Assembly (NCBI GenBank): GCA_903824515.1
Contig: CAIJXA010000009.1
Coordinates: 1-34,497, forward strand
Length of the DNA stretch: 34,497 nt
Origin: an uncultured bacterium
GTDB taxonomy: Bacteria; Patescibacteriota; Minisyncoccia; Moranbacterales; GWC2-37-73
Direction of reading: 5' to 3'
Shown here piece after piece: positions 1,081-33,927 of the stretch. The position numbers and the translations under genes were made by a program. The notes below the pieces were generated by a model. It saw nothing but the letters and a program-made list of their open reading frames with translations. It made no database searches and was not told the origin of the DNA. Numbering within the stretch: position 1 is the stretch's first letter; each line of letters starts with the position of its first letter.

Positions 1081-1207
1081 TTATCTAGTGAGGTGAGCGC
1101 CCTGATGTGTATCAGGACCGATTCAATGGAGGCAGTAAGGGGTATTTACCTCATGAGCCCGTAGTGTTCAGCGCTTGCTCTGGGGTATTAATACCCCATT
1201 TATTATA
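1081..1207 (+). repeat. Dispersed structured repeat, copy A (divergent)
   Basis: TTATCTAGtGAgGTGA...TCATGAGCCCGTAG.GTTCAGcGCTTGCtctGGGGTATTAATACCCCATTTATTAT, matching copies at 28311-28454, 31291-31387 and 33787-33927. Confidence 0.7.
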
Positions 1208-1227
1208 TCAACAAAAAAAAATTATGT

Positions 1228-17167: not shown

Positions 17168-17241
17168 GGGTTTATAGCTCAGTTGGTTAGAGCGCTACAT
17201 TGACATTGTAGAGGTCTGCAGTTCGAGTCTGCATAAGCCCA
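17168..17241 (+). tRNA. tRNA-Val (anticodon GAC)
   Basis: Acceptor GGGTTTA/TAAGCCC, anticodon arm CTACA-TTGACAT-TGTAG, T-arm TGCAG-TTCGAGT-CTGCA, no encoded CCA. Confidence 0.95.
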
Positions 17242-18804
17242 CATATCAATACAAGCAGAAGTGTGAGCTTCTGTTTTTGTTTTGCTTAAAGCATAAACGG
17301 GCTCAAAATTTGGTACGAAGGTGGAATTTCCGCCTTTTGGCAAATTAAAGTTTTTCAAATCTTCAAGCAAACAACTAAAAGGCTCCTTTAAAGCAAAATC
17401 AAACACTTTTTTGTTCTTGATGATGAGGTTCGAAGATAAAATTGAAAGAACTTCTTTTTTGGTTTCATCGTCGCCATCTTTAAAAATTCTGCCAGCTAAT
17501 TTCAAAAACATTAGCATGGCCTGAATGGCTTCGAAAACTTTAACACTACTTCGCTCCATATTTTCGGTTTTGCAGTCCAGAGTGGCTTCTTCTTCGCGAA
17601 GCTCTTTAAGCGTTTGCTGGTAAAGATTTTCGGGAATCTTATCGTCAATATATTTTTCCACGAGAGCTTTCTGGCGTGAGCGATTGCGCTCAAGCAAAAA
17701 AGTATTTTTGTTTTCAATATCCTGCTCATATTCCCCCTGGCGTGTTCCATTTTCTTTGATTGCTTGAACAGCCACTTCCAGAATTTCATAATCAAAACTG
17801 AAGTCATCAACACTTTGGCCAATTTCAAGTATCAAATCTTTTTCGCTCACATATTTTCTTTGATCACACTGATCAAATCCTTTGGATTTTGTGCAATGAT
17901 AATATGTATACCAATGCACATTGTCGCCATGCACCTTTTTTCTGATTTCTGCTGTCATTCGCAAACCACAAGCACAATGCATAAATCCGCGAAACAGAAA
18001 GTGTTTCTTTTTGTCTTGTTTGCAGTGTTTCTTTGGCTCCATAATATCTTGCGCCTCATCAAAGAGATCTTTGGAAATCAGTGGCTCGTGCACTCCTTTT
18101 TGCAATATCCCTTTCCAAATGAAATAGCCGTAGTAAACAGGATTTTTGAGCATGGTATAAATTGAGCCATGATAAACTTTCTTGCCAGTGTGTGAACGCA
18201 ATCCTTCATCAAAAAGCAAATCCGCCAAAGATTTCAAAGAATAATTTCCAGTCACGTAAAGCTTGAAAGCTTTTACGACATATTGAGCTTCAATTTCGTC
18301 AACTTCCATTTTGCGAGTTTTGTAATTCGTCTTGTATCCCAACGGGGGACAAGTGGCATATTCTCCGCGTTTAACTTTTTCATCAAGTCCGCGCCTCACA
18401 TTTTTGGAAAGGTCACGCACATATTGATTAGCCATGCCAAATTCCACACTGGCGATCAAGGCATTGTCATCTGGCAGATAATCACGGTCGTTAGTTTTGA
18501 TGATTTTGATAATGCCTTTTTGTAGCATCCATTTTATGGTGCCTTCATCTTTGGGATTTCTAGCCAAGCGATCAATTTTCCAGCAAAGAATGGCATCAAA
18601 TTTTCCCTGCTCAAATTTCTTAATCATCTCATTGAAAATAGGACGTCCTGGGTCTTTGGCGGATTTTGATTCTTGAAAAATTTGCACAATCTCAATGCCA
18701 TCGCGCCTAGCGATTTCTCGCATAGTAGAAATTTGATCTTCAATTGATTTTGCTTGGCGGTCTTCGCTTTCAGAAGACTTGCGAGCATAAATGATATATT
18801 TCAT
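17179..18804 (-). CDS. Large serine recombinase (resolvase N-terminus, recombinase domain, zinc-ribbon/coiled-coil)
   Basis: MKYIIYARKSSESEDRQAKSIEDQ (catalytic Ser region), CWKIDRLARNPKDEG, FLFRGFMHCACGLRM...YYHCTKSKG...QCDQRKYV zinc ribbon. The last ~20 aa are antisense to tRNA-Val. Confidence 0.93.
   Translation of the reverse strand: MKYIIYARKSSESEDRQAKSIEDQISTMREIARRDGIEIVQIFQESKSAKDPGRPIFNEMIKKFEQGKFDAILCWKIDRLARNPKDEGTIKWMLQKGIIKIIKTNDRDYLPDDNALIASVEFGMANQYVRDLSKNVRRGLDEKVKRGEYATCPPLGYKTNYKTRKMEVDEIEAQYVVKAFKLYVTGNYSLKSLADLLFDEGLRSHTGKKVYHGSIYTMLKNPVYYGYFIWKGILQKGVHEPLISKDLFDEAQDIMEPKKHCKQDKKKHFLFRGFMHCACGLRMTAEIRKKVHGDNVHWYTYYHCTKSKGFDQCDQRKYVSEKDLILEIGQSVDDFSFDYEILEVAVQAIKENGTRQGEYEQDIENKNTFLLERNRSRQKALVEKYIDDKIPENLYQQTLKELREEEATLDCKTENMERSSVKVFEAIQAMLMFLKLAGRIFKDGDDETKKEVLSILSSNLIIKNKKVFDFALKEPFSCLLEDLKNFNLPKGGNSTFVPNFEPVYALSKTKTEAHTSACIDMWAYADSNCRPLQCQCSALTN
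17256..17279 (+). terminator. Terminator after tRNA-Val, lying within the recombinase 3' coding region
   Basis: CAGAAG-tgtgag-CTTCTG-TTTTTG. Confidence 0.6.
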
Positions 18805-18838
18805 ATTAGTTTTTTGTTAAAAATTTATATTTTTGCAT

Positions 18839-18967
18839 AACAAAAGGGCGACCCTGTCTGGACTCAAATCTTTGCAGAATTTGAAACAGAATCGCCCTTT
18901 AATCGAAACGATAAAGACATAGCAAAGCATCGCTTCAAAAAATTCTGCAATATTAATTTGAGTCCAT
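18839..18967 (-). promoter_or_regulatory. Candidate attenuator/alternative RNA structure upstream of the serine recombinase
   Basis: Minus strand: terminator-like AAAGGGCGAttCTGT...ACAGggTCGCCCTTTTGTT. Its loop AAATTCTGCAA-ag-ATTTGAGTCCA is perfectly complementary (11+11 bp) to upstream TGGACTCAAAT-taata-TTGCAGAATTT. Confidence 0.6.
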
Positions 18968-19156
18968 AAATATATTATCATATCCTTTTCAATATTTCTA
19001 GTGATACTTTTCGCGTGTACCTTCCGTGCTTCTACGTCTCTAAATAGGTCTTGGCTCGTTTCTGTTTCGTGAGTCAAATTAAGTTTTCATTCTCGCCAAA
19101 CTTTTAAATACCAAGCGGAGGTTATTTCAAAATCAACTCTGCGGAAAGCGGTCAAA

Positions 19157-19273
19157 AACATTTTTCCATTCGAAAATATTATTCTTATAACGGACAATTT
19201 GCCAGACTGATTTTTTTGGATTACCAAAAAAATCAGACAGGCAAATTTCATTCTTTCAAATAGAAAAATGTTT
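19157..19273. repeat. Nested inverted repeats
   Basis: Inner AATTTGCC-aga-CTGATTTTTTTGG-atta-CCAAAAAAATCAG-aca-GGCAAATT (19196-19247); outer AAACATTTTT ... AAAAATGTTT. Confidence 0.8.
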
Positions 19274-19400
19274 CACACCGCACAATTTATACAGATTTTG
19301 AAAAAACTTTTTTTTAGAACACAATGAGGAAAAGAAAAAGAGCAAGGGATTCGAAAAAACTTCTTTTAAAAACTTTCCTAGGGACTGTTTTTTCTTCACC

Positions 19401-19516
19401 TCTGACAAGACGACATTGTGCAACATGAGCACAAGCGTCAAACCAAGAAAGGTTCTGCGTACCCTCGCCCCTTTCTTGGGTCGCTTGGCATGTACGCACA
19501 ATACTGCCTTGTCAGA
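19401..19516. repeat. ~115-nt rod-like imperfect hairpin, possible structured ncRNA
   Basis: Collinear stems TCTGACAAG/CTTGTCAGA, ATTGTGC/GCACAAT, ACATG/CATGT, CAAGCG/CGCTTG, ACCAAGAAAGG/CCTTTCTTGGGT. Confidence 0.65.
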
Positions 19517-19554
19517 CTCATTTTCTTTTCACAATCTGATTTCAACTCACCCAA

Positions 19555-19574
19555 CCCTCTCAATCTTGAGAGGG
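19555..19574. repeat. Short perfect hairpin
   Basis: CCCTCTCAA-tc-TTGAGAGGG, extended by CTCAC/GTGAG. Confidence 0.75.
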
Positions 19575-20024
19575 CGTGAGATTGCCAAGATTCATGAACT
19601 GCGCCTCTTTTCTGTCTTGTGAATTTGCGAAAAACAGTGATTCGTTGCGGGGCGCGGCCGGCGGAACAATTTCTCCCCAATTCGGACCCACCAATCAATG
19701 TGAAACTAATGGCTCAACCAAGCCACAAAATAAAATATTGTCCGGCTTGTAGCGCTTATTGCGCGATATTTTGGTTTTTAAAAGTTCGTTTTGAATTTTT
19801 GATTTTTGTTTTTGCTTCGAATGGTTTATGATTCTTGAATTCCGTAATTTTCTGAAATTCAGTTGGATTTTGAATTTTGCATTGATGAATTTAATGATTC
19901 GTGGGTTTCGTTTTCTGATTGGATGTCACTAGTTAAGTTACGATACGAGTAACGAAACGTTAACGAATCGTTAAAGTCAAGTTTCGTTTAACTTACGATA
20001 CTTTTCTTTTCGCTTCCTTTTCTT

Positions 20025-20387
20025 TTAATAATTCTTCTCTGGCCTGTCGAATTTTCTGAAAGCAAAAGAGATCGAAGCAAGTTCCTGGAAGGGACATTCG
20101 AACCCTGCATTTTTTGGCGCATGCCTCCAAAGTTTGCATTGCGCATTGCAGGGAACATCGCAATATGGATCACTCCAAATTGGGCATACCTTGTCATCAC
20201 TTCGCACTGGTCGCAGGGGTTGTCTTTTTTGTGATTGACTCTGTTGAGGTTGAGGTTGCTGTGGTTGAGCGTTTTGAGGCTGGGCTTGTGAAGGTTGCCC
20301 AAGATCTTCCTTTTTGGCGTATTCATCAACTGGAAATTCGTACTTTTTGTTTTTGGCAGCTTCGCCAAAAGATTGAAATTCTGACAT
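20025..20387 (-). CDS. Small unknown protein, Pro/Gln-rich linker and Cys-rich C-terminus
   Basis: MSEFQSFGEAAKNKKYEFPVDEYAKKEDLG...QPQQPQPQQSQ...CPIWSDPYCDVPCNAQCKLW...CPF; preferred over the overlapping frame 19988-20368. Confidence 0.55.
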   Translation of the reverse strand: MSEFQSFGEAAKNKKYEFPVDEYAKKEDLGQPSQAQPQNAQPQQPQPQQSQSQKRQPLRPVRSDDKVCPIWSDPYCDVPCNAQCKLWRHAPKNAGFECPFQELASISFAFRKFDRPEKNY

Positions 20388-20399
20388 ATTTTTTTGTGC

Positions 20400-20660
20400 T
20401 TATTTTATTAGCTGTTTTTTATGTTTGCGGATACTTTCGTAGTTTAAATATTGATTGTAGGCTGGGCAGTTGAGAAATTCAGGACTGTGACAACATTTTT
20501 CTTCTCCTTTCTTGAGCGTGTGTCCCTTGAGCTTTTCACAGTGAAAGTTTTTGTTGGTCAAAAGCGTGCAATGTTTTCTTTTGATCGCTTCCTCTATTAT
20601 TGCTCTGTTGATTTTGCGGTCTTCTGATCTTTGAGACCATTTTTTCTGCGTCTGAGTCAT
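20400..20660 (-). CDS. Small Cys-containing unknown protein
   Basis: 86 aa, collinear with neighbours; C-rich HCEKLKGHTLKKGEEKCCHSPEFLNCPAY. Confidence 0.5.
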   Translation of the reverse strand: MTQTQKKWSQRSEDRKINRAIIEEAIKRKHCTLLTNKNFHCEKLKGHTLKKGEEKCCHSPEFLNCPAYNQYLNYESIRKHKKQLIK

Positions 20661-20743
20661 ATTTTTGATTGTTTAGTGATAAATGTATGCTTGATTAAGT
20701 TTAATCCCACCATGAAGCAGTTTTGCTTCAAAACGTGCAGTCC

Positions 20744-20953
20744 TCAGGGAGGTTTTGAGTTTTCCAAGTCGCGCAAAATCTGATATTTTTCTTTTTTGTT
20801 GTAGTCATCATTTTCAACAAGTCGAGAAAACCAATAACGGATAGTGCGTTTTTGGAAATTCTGGCCATCAATTGACAAACGAAAGCAAACCAGGGAACTA
20901 GTCAGGGAATTCCTTTTTGAAAAATGTTTAAAACGCCTTTGAATTGATCTCAT
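20744..20953 (-). CDS. Small basic unknown protein
   Basis: 69 aa; ATG overlaps the stop of the upstream ORF by 4 bp (20950-20953). Confidence 0.4.
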   Translation of the reverse strand: MRSIQRRFKHFSKRNSLTSSLVCFRLSIDGQNFQKRTIRYWFSRLVENDDYNKKEKYQILRDLENSKPP

Positions 20954-21171
20954 GGCTTTTTGTCTTTTAGGTGACTTATATCCGTCCTGCCTTCCACCAC
21001 ATTTTTGACAAAAAGCATTCCGAGTTGGCTGAGCCGATCAAGCCAAAGTTCAATTTCGCCGTCGCTTAAAGAACGCTTCGCTTTTCTTTCGAAGACGTCT
21101 TTGGCTTTTTTCATAAGTTGCTCTGAGTAGTGGCTTTTCATAGGAAATTGTGCGGAACTGCGTTTGCGCAA
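20950..21171 (-). CDS. Small unknown helical protein
   Basis: 73 aa, EQLMKKAKDVFERKAKRSLSDGEIELWLDRLSQLG; collinear with the 407-aa ORF. Confidence 0.5.
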   Translation of the reverse strand: MRKRSSAQFPMKSHYSEQLMKKAKDVFERKAKRSLSDGEIELWLDRLSQLGMLFVKNVVEGRTDISHLKDKKP

Positions 21172-21274
21172 GCTCCTCCTATGGGCTTACTTCTGAAATT
21201 TCAGGGCAAAACAAAAAACCCTTTTGGCAAAGGATTTTTTGAGATAAAGTTCACGGTAAAATATCGCTGAAATT

Positions 21275-22498
21275 TCAGTCCGTGTGTTCTAGTTTCGGTT
21301 GTTCATACAAACCAGGGGTCTGATCATTGAAGGAATCTTCCCAGTCAGCAAATTTGTCCACCTTTTTGTTTTTCATTCTTCGATCGAGATAATCATCGCG
21401 AAAGTCCCTGGGTGGGATTATATGAACCTTGATTTTGTATTCTTGTTTTTCCTTGTCCCATTTTTCAAAAGGATCCGCGTCTTTGATTGTGGGGAAAAAG
21501 TTTTTGAAAGTTTTTGTCAGCTCCTTTTTTCTTTGTTGATATTGCAGTCTTTCATGTGCTTTCAGTTTTCCAACTGCGAAAACGCCTTGTCCCGTACCAA
21601 GATAAAGCAAGAGATACCAACACTTTTTCAGTTCTTGCTTGCCGTTTCTTCTGATGTCAATAAGTCCGAATTTTTCAAAGTCACTGTAAAAAGTTTGATC
21701 TCCAATTTTTGCTCCGATTTCAAAATTGTCATAAAGGGTCAAAAAGATGTCTTGCCAGCGGGTTTTTGGTGGGAGATGGATTGCGTGAGGGTTAGCTATT
21801 GTTTTTTTGGCACCAGTCTTTGCTTTGGGCACTTTTTCACCAGAAGCCTCGGAAATCAATTTTTCCTTGGTCACTATTTTAGCCAAAAAACAGCCATCTT
21901 CGAAGGCAAGGCTTTGAAGCCCAAAATATCCTTGAGTTTCTAAAGCTAATGTAGTTTCAATAAACCTAAAATTATTCTCAAAATCGCAACTTTTCAGGCG
22001 GATGACTTTTTCGGTTTTATCCAAATACTTTTTGAGAAATTCCAGGATTTTTTCCTTGTGAAAAGAAAAAGAAGGATAAAGCTCATCCCCAAATTCCAAT
22101 TTTCCTTCAATGAAATTTTGGATATATTTTTCAATTCTTTGATGGATTTTTTCTTTGACTGTTTTTCCGATCTCCATTTGAAAATTCAAAATCTCGATGT
22201 TTTTGTCATGAAGTCCCGGTCTTTCTGACATATATGCGAGCAACTTTTCAAAGCTGTCTTCTTTCCAAGGCTCAATGCCTTCAAAAGTGAGGCTTCTTGG
22301 AATCAAATTGTATTTTTTGGATAATGCGACAATCCAGCCAAAAACTTTCTGCTTGCTGGCTTCCTTAAACTGAAATTTCTTGAACTGCATAAAATCCAAG
22401 GTCATTGGTGATCTGCTTGGATATTCGATGAGATTCAGCATCAGAAAGAGAAAATCTTCATCCATATATGGAGTTGACTCAGGGTCTTGATTTTGCAT
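21275..22498 (-). CDS. Unknown 407-aa element-encoded protein
   Basis: Long ORF with plausible composition (MDEDFLFLMLNLIEYPSRSPMTLDFMQFKKFQF...); no family recognised. Confidence 0.75.
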   Translation of the reverse strand: MQNQDPESTPYMDEDFLFLMLNLIEYPSRSPMTLDFMQFKKFQFKEASKQKVFGWIVALSKKYNLIPRSLTFEGIEPWKEDSFEKLLAYMSERPGLHDKNIEILNFQMEIGKTVKEKIHQRIEKYIQNFIEGKLEFGDELYPSFSFHKEKILEFLKKYLDKTEKVIRLKSCDFENNFRFIETTLALETQGYFGLQSLAFEDGCFLAKIVTKEKLISEASGEKVPKAKTGAKKTIANPHAIHLPPKTRWQDIFLTLYDNFEIGAKIGDQTFYSDFEKFGLIDIRRNGKQELKKCWYLLLYLGTGQGVFAVGKLKAHERLQYQQRKKELTKTFKNFFPTIKDADPFEKWDKEKQEYKIKVHIIPPRDFRDDYLDRRMKNKKVDKFADWEDSFNDQTPGLYEQPKLEHTD

Positions 22499-22721
22499 GG
22501 CTTAATGTTAGCAAAAATGGAGGGAACAAGTAAATATCGGGGCGCATAAATGGGCGGGGGCTGAAGTTTACTTTTAGTATACATGTTGATACTATATGGA
22601 TAAGATTGTTAAAATAAAAAAAGTACGAATTGAGGTAGTCCTCAAAAAATAGATGGCACCAAGTAACTGAAACGCCCCCAGTGTTAGATTACCAGAATTG
22701 AATCCAGAGAATACAGACTTG

Positions 22722-22753
22722 ATATTTTGAAAGTCAAAAGACTTTCAAAATAT
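22722..22753. repeat. Perfect 14-bp hairpin upstream of the nuclease cassette
   Basis: ATATTTTGAAAGTC-aaaa-GACTTTCAAAATAT. Confidence 0.85.
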
Positions 22754-22803
22754 ATAATAAAAAGTATTGATTATTTTTTGAAATAATTATTTTATTCAAC
22801 AAT

Positions 22804-23715
22804 ATGAAATCATTTAGAATGGAAAAGGAAACTAATCCAATTAATAATATTATTGGCTTAGTTGGTATTTTCATATTGATAGTAATTTTTGTAAGCTTTT
22901 TTCTGAATTTCAATAAAAAAGATGTAGCACCCAAGGAAAAAACAATCACCGACAAATCAACATCTGCCTTAGCAATATCGCAAAGTGAAATTGAAAAATT
23001 GAAATCAGCGGTTGATAAAAATCTAACCTTTAGCATAGTTGCGAGTAATCCAGAGGCATATAAGGGGAAAACTATTCAATGGGGTGCTAAAGTTTTTACG
23101 CAACCAGAAAAAGATAAGAATGGAGTTTATTTTCAAGCGTATGAAAGTGGAGAGGATAATAATTTTGCTATCTCATATGCGAAACCCGATTTTCAAATAA
23201 AAGATGGTGATTTTATTATTGTTACTGGAAAAGTTACTGGAAAATTCCAAGGTGAAAATGCGTTCGGTGCCAAGCTTGAAGTTCCAACAATTGAAGCTGG
23301 ATATGTAGAAATTGGAACAAGAAATGATGTCGTTGCTCCGACTGAAAATGAAGTCTTAGTAAATCAATTAAATACGCAACACGGCTTCACAGTTATTTTA
23401 AATAAGATTGAGTTAGCAAAAAATGAAACTAGATTTTTTTTCAAATTAAAAAATGAAGGTAAGGATAAGGTAAACTTTTATACATACAGCTCCAAAATAA
23501 CACAAGGAACCAAACAGTATGAGACCGAGAGCGCATATAATAACAACCAAAAACTTCCGAGCGAAATACTCCCAGGTGTTGAGGCGGATGGTGTGATTAC
23601 CTTCCCTGCAATTGAAAATGCTCCCAAGAAAATAACTATACATTTGGATGATCCAAGCAATGGCAATTATTCCATAAATTGGAACACTATAAAATTTGAC
23701 GTTGTACTACCATAA
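22804..23715 (+). CDS. Membrane-anchored protein with OB-like and DUF4352-like C-terminal regions
   Basis: N-terminal TM (IIGLVGIFILIVIFVSFFLNF), then NPEAYKGKTIQWGAKVF...DFIIVTGKVTGKFQGENAFGAKLEVPTIEAGYVEI; beta-rich C-terminus. Confidence 0.75.
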   Translation: MKSFRMEKETNPINNIIGLVGIFILIVIFVSFFLNFNKKDVAPKEKTITDKSTSALAISQSEIEKLKSAVDKNLTFSIVASNPEAYKGKTIQWGAKVFTQPEKDKNGVYFQAYESGEDNNFAISYAKPDFQIKDGDFIIVTGKVTGKFQGENAFGAKLEVPTIEAGYVEIGTRNDVVAPTENEVLVNQLNTQHGFTVILNKIELAKNETRFFFKLKNEGKDKVNFYTYSSKITQGTKQYETESAYNNNQKLPSEILPGVEADGVITFPAIENAPKKITIHLDDPSNGNYSINWNTIKFDVVLP

Positions 23716-23717
23716 AT

Positions 23718-24014
23718 ATGAATATAAATTTGGATAAATTTTGGGAATGGTTACAGCAATGGAGTGTTGGAAAAATCATAGTGACACTTTCTCTGCTCGT
23801 TATTATTTTTAAAGACTTTTTGTTTAACCCTAAAGTGCTAAGTTATTTTATTGCATTAGGTGTTTTTCTTCAGCTGTTTGATTTTTGTGATAATAGCCTA
23901 ACAAATTCATGCAAAAAGGATATTGGAAATATTCAAAAAATTGGGCTTAATATTTATATGTTAATAGCAATTATTTCTATGATTGTCATAACATATAATC
24001 TCCTACGACTTTAA
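23718..24014 (+). CDS. Small membrane protein
   Basis: 98 aa with about 3 hydrophobic segments; 2 bp after the previous stop. Confidence 0.65.
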   Translation: MNINLDKFWEWLQQWSVGKIIVTLSLLVIIFKDFLFNPKVLSYFIALGVFLQLFDFCDNSLTNSCKKDIGNIQKIGLNIYMLIAIISMIVITYNLLRL

Positions 24015-24034
24015 CTTGATTTTCAATTATAAAA

Positions 24035-25087
24035 ATGGAAATTTATAAAGACATAGACAAATTGGATGGAGTTGAATTTGAGGATTTAGTTGAAAAACTA
24101 ATTTCCAAAATGGGATTCATAACGGAACGAACCAAGCGTTCTTTTGATGGTGGGATTGATATTATTGCCATTAATGAGCAACCTCTTTTTGATGGGAAAT
24201 ACATAATTCAATGCAAAAGATATTCAAAATCAATTGGGGAACCGATTTTAAGAGATTTGTATGGGGTTGTAAATTCCGAACATGCAAATAAAGGCATTTT
24301 GATAACAAATTCATATTTTACAAAATCAGCAAAAGAATTTGCTAAAAATAAACCGATTGAACTAATCGCAGGGGAGAAACTAGCACAGTTGTTGGATAAA
24401 TATCTTGGTTTTTATTCAGAAAAGAAGCTTGGTGAACTAAAAATACCAGAGGCATATAAAATAACAGCTGATTTACTTGTTCCTGCCATAAAGGAAATCG
24501 AAAAAAGAAGAGCACAGATTAAAAGTGGTCTTATTTTCATCGACAAAAAAGACTTAACTAATGATAAAATTTTCTATAATTTTTTGCAAAAGAAGCAATC
24601 AACACTGTCATTACTAATTCAAACAATGACGAACCAATTTAATCACATGTACTTTTTGTGGGAAAATTCAAAAGGAGAAAATGAAAAATATACAAACTTA
24701 TTAGAACTAAAACAGCATTGCACAGAGTTTACCATGAGCATGCAAAAAATGGAAAAAGAATGGGAGGGCTTTTTCGGTGTTAAAACATCAGAAAATTTGC
24801 ATAGACTCCATGCGATAGCCTGTGAATTTTACGAAGCTATTTTTAAAGAAAATGAGAGGGTTATTTTAGAGCTAGCAAATATTATAAACATTCCAGATAA
24901 CCTCGTACCTGAAAATAATAAGGAGGTAAATCTTGCAGTAAATTACGATATAGGAAAATCTGCCGAGGAATTCGGCAAGGAAGTGGACTTGATATCTAAA
25001 AGAAATAACACGAATAACTCTCGTGGTGGGTGCGGGCTTATGACGGCCTTACTGTTGGTAATATTTTTTGTTATTATTATATTTTAA
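24035..25087 (+). CDS. Mrr-like restriction endonuclease with C-terminal transmembrane helix
   Basis: EFEDLVEKLISKMGF...GGIDIIAINEQPLFDGKYIIQCKRYSKSIGEPILRDLYGVVNSEHANKGILITNSYFTKSAKEFA (PD-(D/E)xK, GxD...QxK); C-term GLMTALLLVIFFVIIIF. Confidence 0.85.
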   Translation: MEIYKDIDKLDGVEFEDLVEKLISKMGFITERTKRSFDGGIDIIAINEQPLFDGKYIIQCKRYSKSIGEPILRDLYGVVNSEHANKGILITNSYFTKSAKEFAKNKPIELIAGEKLAQLLDKYLGFYSEKKLGELKIPEAYKITADLLVPAIKEIEKRRAQIKSGLIFIDKKDLTNDKIFYNFLQKKQSTLSLLIQTMTNQFNHMYFLWENSKGENEKYTNLLELKQHCTEFTMSMQKMEKEWEGFFGVKTSENLHRLHAIACEFYEAIFKENERVILELANIINIPDNLVPENNKEVNLAVNYDIGKSAEEFGKEVDLISKRNNTNNSRGGCGLMTALLLVIFFVIIIF

Positions 25088-25111
25088 ACTGATTTATATT
25101 TTTTCTAAAGA

Positions 25112-27265
25112 TTACAAATCAAAATTCTTCTTGTAATAGCTCAGCCTCTTTTTGAACAATCTTTCAAGATATTCAACTTTTGCGTCCCTGTAATCATAAA
25201 TCTTTCCGCTTCTGTTTTCTCCTCTTTGAATTCTGCCGATATATTGCGTGAGTTTTCCATGAAATGAAAATGGGTAGACCAGAAAAAGACAATCAAGATT
25301 GGCAAAATCAGTGCCTTCGCCAATGAGTTGTCCTGTGGCAATGATTATTTGAAAATTCCCAGCTTCAATCTCCGCGATTCTTTCCTTTCTTCTTTTGTCA
25401 GTCAGATTTCCAGTCAGCAAAACAACTTCATATTTGTCTTTCAAATATTCATTGAGTGTTTCAGCATGTTCTTTGCGTTCAGTCAAAACCAAACATTTGC
25501 GCATTTTGTCAGCTTCGATTTTGATGTCCTCGACAATTTGATTGTTTCGATTTGAATCAAAGATGATGATCTTAGAGGGTATTTCAAAATCTTCAGGTTT
25601 CACTTTGAATGGAATTTCAAGGGTTGTTTCTCTGATAATGACACTTGTCTTTGTATTCTTCAATATCGTTTTTGTTTTTTCATAATTTTTATCAACAACA
25701 TGCAAAATTTCTCCCAAATACATGTGAATCAATTTTTCATCATTGTTTTTGCGTTCTGGCGTGGCAGTCATGCCATAGAGATAATGCGGTCTTAATTTTG
25801 TGATGACGTTGCGAAACATTCTAGCTGGCACATGGTGGCACTCGTCGACAATAACTAATCCGACCTTGCTTGAAATATCATCAATATTTTCAATCTTATT
25901 AAGCGTCTGCACCATGGCAACTGTAATCTTTTTTCCAACAGTTCTTTTGCTGGCGCAAAATTGCCCGATGTCTCTTTTGGGAATTGCTAGAAAACTTTCA
26001 ATGCGATCAAGCCACTGATTGTAGATTTGCTTTTTGTGAACCAAAATCAAAGTTGGTTGCTTAAGCTTTGCAATCAAATCAATTCCCATGACAGTTTTAC
26101 CCGATCCTGGTGGCGCAACCAAAACGCCATTGTCAGCGTTCAGCATTGATTCCACTGCTTCGCTTTGATAGTCAAAGAGCTTGTATTTCGGACTGAATTC
26201 TATCGGCTCAGACTTGAAACGCTTATCCATTATTTCATATTTGATTGATTTTTCGTTCAAAAAATCAGTGAGCTGAGGCGAAAATCCTCTTGGCAGTGCA
26301 ACCAATTCGCCCTCTGAATGTATAAGTTTGAAATATTTTTCCAAGCCATATACACTCATGCCCATTTTCTTTTTGATCAGAAAATCAGCATTGATCAGAT
26401 TGAGATTGTCTTTCAAAAAAATAGCCACCGATTTTGGCAAATTATTTTTCAGAATATATAGTTGCTCTTTCAGGGTTATGGTCAATTTGTTTTTATGATT
26501 GCTAGAAACAAGTGGCGCTTCGCTATTGAATGATTGCCAAATGTTATCCAATTTTGCTGTTGAAATTTTCTTTGCTTGTTTCAAAAATTCCCACTGGTCA
26601 GCAACCATTTCAAAATTATTATCGTAGTTAATAAAAACAGAATTGCCAAGCTTTCTTGATTCTCCTTGCAGTGGCAGGGCAATGAGATTGCCCATGCCTT
26701 CTCCGCCGTGCATATCCTGATTGGGGAAAAGTCTGTCAAAAGAATCATCCTTGTCGAATTGATCAATGATTTCAGCTTCTTTCAAAATATTTGTCGCAAT
26801 TGATCTACTTTTATATGCAGGATATTTCTCTTCAAAAAATATCCAAACATGAGCGCCATTTCCAGAGCGTGACCTTTCAAGATAAGCTTCAATGCCGTGC
26901 TTTTGGCATTGCCTAGCAAATTTTGTGGCTTCTTCTTGCCAATGGTTTCCATCAAAATCAGCAGCTATAAAATATGAGCTATTGTCATCAAGCAAGGGGT
27001 AGACACCATAAACTTTATTGCCCCTCAAATGCTGTTCAATATGATAATCATCGAGTTTGGCATAATCTTTGTGCGGGCAGTCTTTGCATTTCTTTCTCAA
27101 AAGCTTGTTGCACAAGCCCTTTTTCCATTCATTGGTGCATACTGGCGTATATCCGCTTGCCGAACCATCTGCCTTTTGCCAGCGCACCGCAAAAACATCA
27201 TCCCTGCCTTTTAAAAGATTTTTGTAAATGTCTATTTTCTCTTGCGATGATAACTGGCTTTCCAT
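25112..27265 (-). CDS. AEP-family primase (TOTE-like) fused to SF2 DEAD/DEAH helicase
   Basis: Zinc-binding CTNEWKKGLCNKLLRKKCKDCPH, AEP motifs YFIAADFDG and RSGNGAHVWIFF, GNLIALPLQG; helicase GVLVAPPGSGKT, VIVDECHH, GMTATPER, QYIGRIQRGE. Confidence 0.87.
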   Translation of the reverse strand: MESQLSSQEKIDIYKNLLKGRDDVFAVRWQKADGSASGYTPVCTNEWKKGLCNKLLRKKCKDCPHKDYAKLDDYHIEQHLRGNKVYGVYPLLDDNSSYFIAADFDGNHWQEEATKFARQCQKHGIEAYLERSRSGNGAHVWIFFEEKYPAYKSRSIATNILKEAEIIDQFDKDDSFDRLFPNQDMHGGEGMGNLIALPLQGESRKLGNSVFINYDNNFEMVADQWEFLKQAKKISTAKLDNIWQSFNSEAPLVSSNHKNKLTITLKEQLYILKNNLPKSVAIFLKDNLNLINADFLIKKKMGMSVYGLEKYFKLIHSEGELVALPRGFSPQLTDFLNEKSIKYEIMDKRFKSEPIEFSPKYKLFDYQSEAVESMLNADNGVLVAPPGSGKTVMGIDLIAKLKQPTLILVHKKQIYNQWLDRIESFLAIPKRDIGQFCASKRTVGKKITVAMVQTLNKIENIDDISSKVGLVIVDECHHVPARMFRNVITKLRPHYLYGMTATPERKNNDEKLIHMYLGEILHVVDKNYEKTKTILKNTKTSVIIRETTLEIPFKVKPEDFEIPSKIIIFDSNRNNQIVEDIKIEADKMRKCLVLTERKEHAETLNEYLKDKYEVVLLTGNLTDKRRKERIAEIEAGNFQIIIATGQLIGEGTDFANLDCLFLVYPFSFHGKLTQYIGRIQRGENRSGKIYDYRDAKVEYLERLFKKRLSYYKKNFDL

Positions 27266-27327
27266 TGAATTTCAGCAATTATGAAATGCTTATTGTCCCC
27301 ACAAAATACCAGCAATATGCGAAAAAT

Positions 27328-27376
27328 GCAAACAAAAAAACAAGAGTTTAGGCTCCTGCTGATTTGTTTTTTTGTT
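27328..27376. terminator. Bidirectional-looking terminator between primase-helicase and hepT-like gene
   Basis: AAACAAAAAAACAAgagtttaggctcctgctgatTTGTTTTTTTGTTTT. Confidence 0.5.
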
Positions 27377-27388
27377 TTAAGTGAAAGT

Positions 27389-27739
27389 CTATTTCAAAAG
27401 AGATTTTACAATTTTTTTCAATTCTTTCAAATCATCCTGGCAAGTTTCCCAAACAATCTTTTTGCTCACTCCAAAGTATTCGTGAATGAGCTTATTTCTG
27501 ATTCCGATAATCAGCTTCCAGGGAATGTTGGGATTTTCTTTTTGAAATTCATTACTGATATTATTTGAGGCCTCTCCGATAATTTCAAGTTCCCGTATCA
27601 CAGCATCAAAGGCCATATCATTTTGGGAGAAATTTTCAAAATCACCAACATACTTGATGTATTTTTCAACCTTTTCTATGGCTTCCGAAATATGTTCAAG
27701 ATATGTTCTGTCATTTCTCATAGATAAGTTCAGCTTCAT
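27389..27739 (-). CDS. hepT: HepT-like HEPN (DUF86) toxin
   Basis: ELEIIGEASNNISNEF...IPWKLIIGIRNKLIHEYFGV with RX4HXY motif (RNKLIHEY). Confidence 0.9.
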   Translation of the reverse strand: MKLNLSMRNDRTYLEHISEAIEKVEKYIKYVGDFENFSQNDMAFDAVIRELEIIGEASNNISNEFQKENPNIPWKLIIGIRNKLIHEYFGVSKKIVWETCQDDLKELKKIVKSLLK

Positions 27740-28052
27740 TGATTACTTCATCGCGAAAAAATTTACTAAGACTATCAGGAGTGAGGAGGTCAACCTTTTT
27801 TTGAATGTGACCTTCCATAGTATATTGAATTTCAACAAGGTCAAAAAGGCTGATGTGGGCATCAGGCGTAAATTCCATCAAGACATCCACATCGCTGGTT
27901 TCCTTGGCATCACCGTGGAGATATGAACCGAACAAAGACACTTTCTGAATGTCTTTTTTAAATTTATTGAGTTCAATAGCTTTTCGAACCCGGTCTTTGA
28001 TTTCTTGTTTACTCATATATTTTTCCTTTAATCTCAGTATACCATAATACAA
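27711..28052 (-). CDS. mntA: MntA-like minimal nucleotidyltransferase antitoxin
   Basis: VSLFGSYLHGDAKETSDVDVLMEF (GSX9-10DXD); overlaps hepT by 29 bp. Confidence 0.88.
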   Translation of the reverse strand: MYYGILRLKEKYMSKQEIKDRVRKAIELNKFKKDIQKVSLFGSYLHGDAKETSDVDVLMEFTPDAHISLFDLVEIQYTMEGHIQKKVDLLTPDSLSKFFRDEVINEAELIYEK

Positions 28053-28264
28053 TGCAAAATCAACAGTTGGCTCATATTATGACACAAACTTTGCAAAATA
28101 CAAAAATATCAAACTTTAGCCATTAAATCCCTGATTTGATCCAGCTTAACCTTTGTCGGCTCCCAATTTTGCAAAATTTTGGTATATGATATACTAAACG
28201 GGCTGATGGGGTTACAAGAACTGTCTTGCTGTCCCCACAAAAAAAGTACACACTAAAAAAGAAA

Positions 28265-28293: not shown

Positions 28294-28310
28294 GCTTTAT
28301 AAGAGAGTCT

Positions 28311-28454
28311 ATTATCTAGCGAAGTAAATTAAATGAGAGTACTCTTTCATTTTCGAGCGAGCGACGATAACAAAAGGGTGATTTGCTCACGCAGCTTGCT
28401 GCGTGAGCAAAAGGGGTACAGGGCTTGCCACGGGGTATTAATACCCATTTATTA
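28311..28454 (+). repeat. Dispersed structured repeat, copy B
   Basis: ATTATCTAGCGAAGTaAA..AAATGAGAGTACTCTTTCATTTTCG..GCGACGATAACAAAAGGGTGATTTGCTCACGCAGCTTGCTGCGTGAGCAAAAGGGGTACAGGGCTTGCCACGGGGTATTAATACCC. Confidence 0.9.
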
Positions 28455-30510: not shown

Positions 30511-31057
30511 ATATTATACTATATTTTTAAATAATGCACCAATACTCAAATCTGGGCATGTAGCTTATACGTAGAAATAATATTATTGATTAATGTTAAT
30601 CAATGTTTTAGTGTGGATGAAGATATCTTTAAATTAACTTTATTAAAATATATTTATTTAAGTATATTTTAATATTAACATTAAATCCTGATTATTTTAA
30701 GCATGAAGGCCTCCATTCTTATGCTGGGCTAGTGCCGTCAGGAATCGGGATGCACTCAAGCAAATGTATTCACTATAAGAGTTTGTACATAACAGTTGCC
30801 CTATAAATTGGGATGCATATTACTTCTCGTAGCGTATGGCTTGCGTGTTATTATATATTATAAAATAAAACAGTAAATATGTCAATCTCTAAATATGCAT
30901 ATTTCTTCAATTATTCAGGTATACGGGAAAACCTAGTGCACTTTTTGACTATAAAGCTTAACTACATCAGTATTTTGTGATATTAAATATCTGATTAGTG
31001 ACACTTGTGAATTTTACGAGTATAATCTGTCTTTTGATGGCTATGTTTAATATGTAG

Positions 31058-31073
31058 TGTTCCACGTGGAACA
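31058..31073. promoter_or_regulatory. parS-like site 1
   Basis: TGTTCCACGTGGAACA, perfect palindrome. Confidence 0.85.
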
Positions 31074-31272
31074 GATTACTTTGAATCCAATAAAGCTGTA
31101 TTCTATTAATAATATTGCCGTCTACAAATGTAGACCTTAATTTTGATCAAGCCGATTAATTGATGATAATAATTAGTGAGGTTCTTGCAACTTCTTGAAT
31201 AGCGCCATAAGGTTAAGAGGACGCCTTGAAAAGTCGCTTAATTTTAGTGTGATTATAGAGTGACAAATTTTT

Positions 31273-31288
31273 TGTTCCACGTGGAACA
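31273..31288. promoter_or_regulatory. parS-like site 2
   Basis: TGTTCCACGTGGAACA. Confidence 0.85.
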
Positions 31289-31290
31289 AG

Positions 31291-31387
31291 ATTACGATAA
31301 CAAAAGGGTTATTTGTCTACGCAGTTTGTTGCGTGAGCCCAAGGGGTACAGGACTTGCCCTGTGATATTCATGCCCCTTTTATTAAT
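31291..31387 (+). repeat. Dispersed structured repeat, copy C (5'-truncated)
   Basis: TTACGATAACAAAAGGGTTATTTGTCTACGCAGTTTGTTGCGTGAGCCCAAGGGGTACAGGACTTGCCCTGTGATATTCATGCCCC. Confidence 0.85.
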
Positions 31388-31414
31388 CATGGCTACAAAT
31401 GGATGTTCTTGGTT

Positions 31415-31430
31415 TGTTCCACGTGGAACA
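31415..31430. promoter_or_regulatory. parS-like site 3
   Basis: TGTTCCACGTGGAACA. Confidence 0.85.
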
Positions 31431-31516
31431 AAATAGGCTTTATTGATTTAAATAATGATTTTTCTGCAAATATGTTATCTAGGTATTCTTGAGATAATTT
31501 TCTTTTTTCATAATAC

Positions 31517-31532
31517 TGTTCCATGTGGAACA
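31517..31532. promoter_or_regulatory. parS-like site 4 (variant)
   Basis: TGTTCCATGTGGAACA (one central change). Confidence 0.7.
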
Positions 31533-31564
31533 ATATTATGAAGAAAAGATGGTAAATTATTGAT

Positions 31565-31580
31565 TGTTCCACGTGAAACA
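31565..31580. promoter_or_regulatory. parS-like site 5 (variant)
   Basis: TGTTCCACGTGAAACA, within the TGTTNCACGTGNAACA consensus. Confidence 0.85.
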
Positions 31581-31659
31581 ATCTTGTTATTTAATTAATT
31601 CATTGCTGAGAATATATTTTGTGAAATGATTAACAGGAAACAAGATTATTAATCTATGC

Positions 31660-31675
31660 TGTTCCACGTGGAACA
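31660..31675. promoter_or_regulatory. parS-like site 6
   Basis: TGTTCCACGTGGAACA. Confidence 0.85.
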
Positions 31676-31765
31676 ATGTTTGATTGGATGCTTTTGTTTT
31701 GTATTTGTTGGATTGTAATGCGAACAATAAATATATATACATATGTGTTGCTACTGGCCTGCTAT

Positions 31766-31781
31766 TGTTCCACATGGAACA
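31766..31781. promoter_or_regulatory. parS-like site 7 (variant)
   Basis: TGTTCCACATGGAACA within a longer palindrome GCTATTGTTCCACATGGAACAATAGC. Confidence 0.7.
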
Positions 31782-31867
31782 ATAGCAGAAGATATTTGTA
31801 AAATATTAAAGTGCCATAAATTGTCATATTTATTATTTAAGTGCTGATTACATCAATTGAGGTATTT

Positions 31868-31883
31868 TGTTCCACGTGGAACA
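31868..31883. promoter_or_regulatory. parS-like site 8
   Basis: TGTTCCACGTGGAACA. Confidence 0.85.
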
Positions 31884-31912
31884 GGGCTTAAAAATAAAGA
31901 GGGAGTTCATAG

Positions 31913-32262: not shown

Positions 32263-33786
32263 ATGACAAAAAAAATTCCTCAGGCAGTGATTGAGGTATT
32301 AAAAAAAATTGACATAGCTGGATTTGAAGCATTTATTGTGGGCGGCTGCGTGCGCGATTTGTTGTCTGATAAAATTCCAAAAGATTGGGACTGCGCAACA
32401 AATGCAAATCCAAGGCAAATAATGGAAATTTTTCCAGATAGCTTTTATGAAAATGAGTTCGGTACGGTTGGCGTAAAAGTTGAGCCATTTATAAATAATA
32501 ATTTAGTGAGGCCAGGAAGAGAACATGATGTAATCGAGGTTACAACATATCGAATTGAATCACAATATTCTGATCGAAGAAGGCCTGATGAGGTCAAATT
32601 TGCACAAACTTTGACAGAGGACTTGAGTCGAAGGGATTTTACAATGAATGCAATAGCTTTGAAAATTACAAATTACAAATTACAAATTACAAATACAGCT
32701 TCGGACGCAAGAAAAAAGAAAAACTGTGAATTTGAAATTGTGGATTTGTTTGACGGTCGGGAGGATATTAAAAATAAAATTATTCGGGCAGTTGGCGATG
32801 CAAATGCGCGATTTAATGAGGATGCCCTTCGAATATTGCGAGCAATTCGTTTTCATGCGCAGCTAAATTTTGAAATTGAAAATGAAACATTTAAAGCTTT
32901 AAAAAATAATGCCGCCCTCATCTCTCATGTTGCAAGTGAGCGAATAAAGGATGAGTTTGTAAAGATTATTCTTTCAGATAATCCTGCTGAGGGTGTTGAT
33001 ATGATGCAAAAGACGGGGGTTTTGAAAAACATCATTCCAGAGCTTGAAAATGGCGTTGGCATTGCTCAGAATAAACATCATATCTACACAATATATCAAC
33101 ACTGTCTGATGTCTCTCAAGCATTGTCCATCAAGAAAACTTGAAGTTCGCTTGGCAGCGCTTTTCCATGACATTGCCAAGCCGCAGACTAAAAGGGGAGA
33201 GGGAATTGATGCAACTTTTTATAATCACGATCATGTTGGAGCAAGAGTTGTGGAAAAAATGCTCAAGCGATTGAAATTTTCTAATATTATAATTGACAAA
33301 GTTGTATTACTGGTTGATAATCACATGTTCTATTATAATCCGGAGGAAGTTGGTGAGGCTAGCGTGCGTAAGTTAATCAAAAAAGTTGGACTAGAAAATG
33401 TGAAAGATTTGATCAATCTTCGAATTTCTGATCGCTTAGGAAGTGGAACGCCAAAAGCTAAGCCGTACAAGCTTCGTCATCTGGAATATATAATTGAAAA
33501 AGTTTCTAAGGATGCTGTTTCCGTCAAAATGTTGAAAATTAATGGAAACGATTTGATAATGGAATTGGGTCTTGCGCCTGGTCCAAAAATTGGGGCAATT
33601 TTAGATGTACTCTTGGCTGAAGTGATTGAAAAAGCTGAAAAAAATAACAAAGAAAGCCTTTTGATTCGAGCTAGGCAACTTGACGGAGAAGATTTGCAGA
33701 AACTTCGCGAGATGGCCAAGGAAAAAATTCAGGAGAAGAAGGAAGAAGATGATCAAGAGATAAAAGGAAAGCATTGGATAAAATAA
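32263..33786 (+). CDS. cca: CCA-adding tRNA nucleotidyltransferase / poly(A) polymerase family with HD domain
   Basis: FIVGGCVRDLLSDKIPKDWDCATNA, RRDFTMNAIAL, DALRILRAIRFHAQLNFEI, HDIAKP HD motif. Confidence 0.93.
   Translation: MTKKIPQAVIEVLKKIDIAGFEAFIVGGCVRDLLSDKIPKDWDCATNANPRQIMEIFPDSFYENEFGTVGVKVEPFINNNLVRPGREHDVIEVTTYRIESQYSDRRRPDEVKFAQTLTEDLSRRDFTMNAIALKITNYKLQITNTASDARKKKNCEFEIVDLFDGREDIKNKIIRAVGDANARFNEDALRILRAIRFHAQLNFEIENETFKALKNNAALISHVASERIKDEFVKIILSDNPAEGVDMMQKTGVLKNIIPELENGVGIAQNKHHIYTIYQHCLMSLKHCPSRKLEVRLAALFHDIAKPQTKRGEGIDATFYNHDHVGARVVEKMLKRLKFSNIIIDKVVLLVDNHMFYYNPEEVGEASVRKLIKKVGLENVKDLINLRISDRLGSGTPKAKPYKLRHLEYIIEKVSKDAVSVKMLKINGNDLIMELGLAPGPKIGAILDVLLAEVIEKAEKNNKESLLIRARQLDGEDLQKLREMAKEKIQEKKEEDDQEIKGKHWIK
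32663..32690 (+). repeat. In-gene tandem repeat (AAATTAC)x4
   Basis: aaattac repeated four times plus partial, encoding ITNYKLQITN within cca. Confidence 0.9.
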
Positions 33787-33927
33787 AAAGGGTATTAATA
33801 TCCCCGGGCAAGCCCTGTAACCTACGGGCTCACGAGGCAAGCCTCGAAGGCAAATCACCCTTTTGTTATCGTCACTCTCACGAAAATGAAAGAGTACTTT
33901 CATTTCGTTCACTTCGCTAGATAATAA
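33787..33927 (-). repeat. Dispersed structured repeat, copy D
   Basis: Reverse complement: TTATCTAGCGAAGTGAACGAAATGAAAGTACTCTTTCATTTTCGTGAGAGTGACGATAACAAAAGGGTGATTTGCCTTCGAGGCTTGCCTCGTGAGCCCGTAGGTTACAGGGCTTGCCCGGGGATATTAATACCC. Confidence 0.9.

What the first reader, a model, noticed from the sequence alone, without database searches (positions are those of the whole stretch)
18839..18967. Competing RNA structures upstream of the serine recombinase (candidate attenuator)
On the minus strand, AAAGGGCGAttCTGT...ACAGggTCGCCCTTTTGTT forms a terminator-like hairpin ~35 nt before the recombinase ATG. Its loop (AAATTCTGCAA-ag-ATTTGAGTCCA) is perfectly complementary over 11+11 bp to a segment ~60 nt upstream (TGGACTCAAAT-taata-TTGCAGAATTT). 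The interleaved pairings would compete or form a pseudoknot, a plausible switch for recombinase expression.
Basis: partly seen in the sequence, partly recalled or inferred. Interest (0 to 1): 0.8.

Follow-up and report, generated by a model that had tools for sequence, protein, structure and literature searches.

The report
Pseudoknot RNA leader of bacterial recombinases
The sequence just before a DNA-integrating enzyme's gene folds into an RNA knot that recurs, with matching changes on both sides of its stems, before dozens of such genes (and a few Cas12a genes) in tiny Patescibacteria, so it is probably an undescribed control element of their mobile and defence genes.

Summary
On the minus strand, 18966-18843, two helices (A1, A2) interleave with a GC-rich helix (G): order A1-A2-G-A2'-A1'-G'. 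A covariance model built only from four compact relatives finds the window (E = 1.7e-5); a second model finds members in 38 of 380 Patescibacteria genomes. In 36 aligned members the A1 and G pairs are 99% formed, 18 of 20 pairs show compensatory changes (0/500 shuffles), and GU wobbles vastly outnumber AC mismatches (94 to 2 in 64 members), so the coding-sense RNA is what is selected. A -10 hexamer ends about 6 nt before A1, A1' usually abuts G' with no linker, a T-tract follows, and the gene starts about 26 nt later. Of 64 structure-checked members, 56 precede serine recombinases; others precede a Cas12a operon, a DNA methylase and a few unrelated genes. Rfam has no such family, and the papers searched report none. 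Best reading: a 5'-terminal pseudoknot leader gating read-through into DNA-modifying genes. The attenuator idea stands as the leading mechanism, but a stable pseudoknot is likelier than simple mutual exclusion. The signal is unknown and no transcript data exist.

The parts
18974..18979 (-). predicted -10 hexamer (GATAAT) of the leader promoter
   Evidence: TATAAT-like hexamer at a fixed distance (ending about 6 nt) before helix A1 across 64 members; 7 nt in the window
18956..18966 (-). A1, 5' arm of the outer helix; predicted transcript start at or next to its first base
   Evidence: sequence; all 9 scored A1 pairs show changes on both sides across 36 members
18940..18950 (-). A2, 5' arm of the inner helix
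   Evidence: A2 97% paired in 40 members against 47% with swapped arms
18886..18900 (-). G, 5' strand of the GC-rich helix, lying inside the A hairpin loop
   Evidence: G was not in the model that made the alignment, yet its pairs covary
18872..18882 (-). A2', 3' arm of the inner helix
   Evidence: sequence
18859..18869 (-). A1', 3' arm of the outer helix
   Evidence: sequence; covariation
18843..18857 (-). G', 3' strand of the GC-rich helix, directly behind A1'
   Evidence: sequence; covariation; linker 0 nt in 55/64 members
18842..18845 (-). TTTT tract at the end of G' (terminator-like)
   Evidence: T at tail positions 13-15 in 52-60 of 64 members, also kept when unpaired
17179..18804 (-). 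large serine recombinase, 541 aa, the downstream gene; its 3' end runs through tRNA-Val
   Evidence: Pfam Resolvase, Recombinase and Zn_ribbon_recom

Best explanation
It is the 5' leader of the recombinase mRNA. Transcription starts at about the first base of A1. The leader folds at once into the A1-A2 hairpin, whose loop exposes G. When G' emerges directly behind the hairpin it pairs with G, giving a pseudoknot in which the A1 and G helices stack end to end with the RNA 5' end at their junction. Because G:G' is a GC-rich stem followed by a T-tract about 26 nt before the start codon, its formation stops or slows read-through, so the DNA-acting enzyme is made rarely unless something (a protein, a ligand, the recombinase itself, or the folding rate) resolves the knot. 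Shown by sequence comparison: a conserved pseudoknotted RNA, its sense strand, and its place between a predicted promoter and the gene. Inferred: transcription start, coaxial stacking, negative control, termination as the controlled step. Unknown: the signal.
For: Covariation: 99.0% of A1+G cells paired, 18/20 pairs with two-sided changes, 0/500 shuffles; sliding the partner drops pairing to 30-46%. GU 94 versus AC 2 over 64 members. The model without the window found the window, and the second model found held-out L072, L004 and L014. -10 hexamer and a purine start (50/64) fixed relative to A1. T-tract kept even when unpaired. Median 26 nt from G' to the start codon in 56 members, usually too short for a separate promoter. 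56 of 64 downstream genes are serine recombinases. In the window the two nested folds differ by only about 4 kcal/mol (-42.3 and -38.6).
Against: No transcript, termination or probing data. Some members have poor T-tracts (L208 CCGCTAAGTG, L062 CCATTTGG) and several keep extra stem pairs through the T region, so the stem may matter more than termination. Translation or stability control would leave much the same signature. Most recombinases of the same host family lack a detectable leader, so it is dispensable for a recombinase.
Confidence: 0.52

Rival explanations
1. The leader is a translational or mRNA-stability element: the knot buries the 5' end and lies close to the ribosome site, controlling initiation or decay rather than termination.
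For: 5' end predicted at the coaxial junction, 0-nt linker in 55/64; G' 10-50 nt from most start codons; compensated stem pairs in place of T in L134 (AAACGGGCGG/CCGTCCGTTT) and L208.
Against: T is retained in 72% of cells that have no pairing partner, which neither role needs; distance to the start codon is variable.
Confidence: 0.28
2. Simple competing hairpins: the A hairpin is an antiterminator and G a terminator, never formed together.
For: Near-equal energies of the two nested folds in the window; T-tract behind G'.
Against: A overlaps neither G nor G', and the exact abutment of A1' and G' in 55/64 members is unexplained if the helices never coexist.
Confidence: 0.12
3. The RNA works in trans with the recombinase, for example as a guide or scaffold like the bridge RNA of IS110 elements.
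For: Position upstream of a recombinase gene and strong association with one enzyme class.
Against: The variable parts are the paired arms; arms have no clear excess of matches elsewhere in their loci (A1 1 against 2.2 expected, A2 5 against 2.6). The same leader precedes Cas12a, methylase and other genes.
Confidence: 0.05
4. The repeats are DNA features (recombinase binding or attachment sites), and the RNA structure is incidental.
For: Inverted repeats next to an integrase gene.
Against: GU/AC asymmetry (94 to 2) and a wobble at G pair 9 in 31/64 are RNA-strand signatures; the insertion site is at tRNA-Val, at the other end of the gene; non-recombinase genes carry the element too.
Confidence: 0.03

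Closest known systems
Intrinsic-terminator attenuators (trp-type, T-box, riboswitch expression platforms; own knowledge)
   Same: promoter-proximal leader, GC-rich stem plus T-tract just before the gene, further pairing upstream
   Different: the upstream helices do not overlap the terminator stem but interleave with it; no leader peptide or known aptamer found; T-tract short or absent in some members
H-type pseudoknot autoregulatory leaders (S15 rpsO, T4 gene 32; own knowledge)
   Same: pseudoknot in the 5' UTR near the start codon, possible product feedback
   Different: much longer stems, RNA 5' end predicted at the helix junction, spread over unrelated genes
Phage lambda int sib retroregulation (own knowledge)
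   Same: an RNA structure controls an integrase
   Different: sib lies downstream of int and acts through RNase III; here the structure is the 5' leader
IS110 bridge RNA and TnpB omega RNA (own knowledge)
   Same: structured RNA beside a mobile-element gene
   Different: no variable guide loop; arms covary as helices; no tnpB found among the island genes scanned

Membership tests
Rfam 15 families (4227) | score above a family's gathering threshold | tested here: not met
   window: only tRNAs at gathering level; leader regions gave only weak sub-threshold matches
Leader pseudoknot class defined here | A1-A2-G-A2'-A1'-G' order with covarying A1 and G | tested here: met
   window found by a model that did not contain it
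Leader pseudoknot class defined here | -10 hexamer just before A1 and a gene shortly after G' | tested here: met
   window GATAAT 7 nt before A1, ATG about 38 nt after G'
Intrinsic terminator / attenuator | GC-rich stem directly followed by a T-tract | tested here: met
   window TCGCCCTTTTGTT; T-run of 4 or more in 50/64 members
Intrinsic terminator / attenuator | transcripts end at the T-tract and read-through is regulated | not testable with these tools
   no RNA data
Riboswitch | conserved ligand-binding aptamer core | not testable with these tools
   some unpaired conservation (C, C, A, A after G) but no ligand and no metabolic gene link
Bridge-type guide RNA | variable loops complementary to target or donor DNA | tested here: not met
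   no clear excess of exact arm or loop matches within loci; longer-range or imperfect matches not tested
Serine recombinase attachment site | located at the element-chromosome junction | tested here: not met
   the junction is at tRNA-Val; relatives without the island join the tRNA to sequence matching window position about 28650

The most novel reading that the evidence does not exclude
The leader is a shared switch by which Patescibacteria, or the mobile elements in them, hold integrases, CRISPR-Cas12a and DNA methylases silent and release them on one common cellular or infection signal sensed by the pseudoknot.
Probability: 0.2. Interest if true: 0.88.

Novelty: new variant of a known kind. 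Interest (0 to 1): 0.68.

Why it matters
No member of this RNA class is in Rfam, and no report was found in the papers searched, yet it occurs in about 10% of sampled Patescibacteria genomes across many families. It ties the integration of genomic islands, and in some genomes Cas12a, to a defined RNA element that can be tested directly. It would give a handle on how these barely cultivated bacteria control foreign DNA, and a portable regulatory part.

Tried and rejected
(1) An echo of the A1 arm in the start of a small downstream ORF (seen in L004 and L072) as a competitor pairing: not kept in L214, L221, L216, L222 or L218. (2) Guide-like matches of the arms to flanking DNA: no clear excess. 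(3) Viral contigs: three scans with patterns or the recombinase gave nothing usable; the phage collection had no DNA match. (4) The pattern GGGCGGTTCT..AGAACCGTCC in all genomes also hits a common Bacillota inverted repeat; the covariance model separates it: in 49 genomes reached through such loci the best hit outside one Bacteriovorax MAG was 34 bits. (5) L199 passed the model weakly but lacks the conserved G helix sequence and a recombinase; excluded. (6) Known RNA families: none fit.

Full report
Observation. The described segments are present at the stated coordinates on the minus strand and are exactly complementary. The region folds much better than shuffles (z -4.1). The two pairings interleave: A1-A2-G-A2'-A1'-G'. 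Rfam has no family that matches.

Homologues. The closest recombinase found (L004, 62% identical, same host family) keeps both pairings although the arm sequences differ: TGGACACAATTC/GAATTGTGTCCA in place of TGGACTCAAAT/ATTTGAGTCCA, and TTACGGAAAC/GTTTCCGTAA in place of TTGCAGAATTT/AAATTCTGCAA. L033, from another family of the order, does the same. A scan for interleaved repeats found the same layout, in compact form, upstream of recombinases L008, L009, L011 and L012, and in L014. A model from the four compact ones alone (R1) recovered the window at E = 1.7e-5 and 14 other genomes of 380 sampled in the phylum, one of them a training member, then more in the class and order. A second model from 36 members (R2) found held-out L072, L004 and L014, 23 of 124 genomes in the order and 38 of 380 in the phylum. 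Named records with strong hits are Patescibacteria such as Falkowbacteria, Moranbacteria and Gracilibacteria, plus a few MAGs titled only 'bacterium' and one contig in a Bacteriovorax MAG, L133; 48 other genomes, reached through a look-alike inverted repeat, gave only weak matches.

Structure test. On 36 members, A1 (9 pairs) and G (11 pairs) are formed in 99.0% of cells, with two-sided changes in 18 of 20 pairs, and no shuffle of 500 reached any measure; sliding partners by one to three columns drops pairing to 30-46%. The alignment was fitted to A1 but not to G, so the G result is independent of the fit. A2 is 97% paired against 47% for swapped arms. Over 64 members GU pairs number 94 and AC 2, and pair 9 of G is a G-U wobble in 31. 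On the other strand these would be A-C mismatches, so selection acts on the RNA read in the gene's direction.

Placement. A TATAAT-like hexamer lies at a fixed distance before A1 (about 6 nt between), and the first A1 base is a purine in 50 of 64; A1' is followed by G' with no linker in 55 of 64; T dominates tail positions 12-15. The T's persist in 72% of unpaired cells, though some members replace them with compensated pairs. The start codon lies a median 26 nt after the 11th G' base.

Genes. 56 of 64 downstream ORFs are serine recombinases by phmmer against the window protein. The rest include a cas12a operon with cas4, cas1 and cas2 (L240), an N6/N4 DNA methylase, DUF4352, DUF4145 (gap 407 nt), a membrane protein without a Pfam match and a helix-turn-helix protein (gap 236 nt). 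L206 has no clear ORF and L133 ends at the contig end. Among other Cas12a genes of the order, two more leaders show the same layout by eye (L309, L316), although the model did not report them. So the leader is tied mostly to mobile and defence genes, not strictly to one enzyme.

Context in the window. The recombinase frame runs into tRNA-Val. In relatives the tRNA is followed directly by sequence matching window 28645 onward, so an island of about 11 kb (about 17243 to about 28250) is inserted there. Its cargo includes a TOTE primase-helicase and an Mrr-type nuclease, and two small ORFs at 27389-28052 that look like a HEPN/MNT pair (from reading the sequence, not tested).

Mechanism. Shown: a conserved pseudoknotted sense-strand RNA between a predicted promoter and the gene. 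Inferred: start at A1, coaxial A1-G stacking, and a negative effect on expression. Termination is favoured because of the kept T-tract and the lack of room for another promoter, but translation or stability control cannot be excluded. The exact abutment of A1' and G' argues for coexisting helices; the near-equal energies of the two nested folds in the window (-42.3 and -38.6) leave competition possible. The pseudoknot itself could not be scored by the folding tool.

Literature. Searches of the open-access library found no report of such a leader; subscription papers and preprints are largely not covered.

Limits. Most members come from metagenome-assembled genomes; model E-values are rough; the 64 were chosen by models and a structure script, so pairing percentages lean upward, while the swapped-arm and shuffle controls show the arms match within, not between, members.

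Noticed in passing
window 18990-19640 (minus strand): About 650 nt of noncoding, hairpin-rich sequence just upstream of the leader promoter is 73% identical in L004 and partly matched in L072 and L242; possibly a second structured RNA or a DNA-level site.
   Followed up: partly
window 17168-28250: Island of about 11 kb inserted at tRNA-Val; relatives L030 and L031 show the empty site. The recombinase reading frame ends inside the tRNA.
   Followed up: partly
L240:6211-6369(-), L309, L316: Pseudoknot leaders of the same layout precede Cas12a genes; L309 and L316 judged by eye only.
   Followed up: partly
L004, L072, L214, L216, L221, L222: A small ORF of about 40 aa with one likely membrane helix lies between leader and recombinase, overlapping the recombinase start in several; absent in the window.
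   Followed up: partly
window 31056-31887: Eight copies of TGTTCCACGTGGAACA-like palindromes, one of them TGTTCCACGTGAAACA, which matches the parS consensus as remembered; looks like a ParB-binding cluster.
   Followed up: no
window 1146-1211, 28310-28450, 31294-31384, 33777-33926: An intergenic repeat family of up to 141 nt (about 80% alike), in both orientations.
   Followed up: no
L133:29-175(-): A strong leader match (82 bits) on a short contig of a MAG named Bacteriovorax; may be a mis-binned Patescibacteria contig.
   Followed up: no
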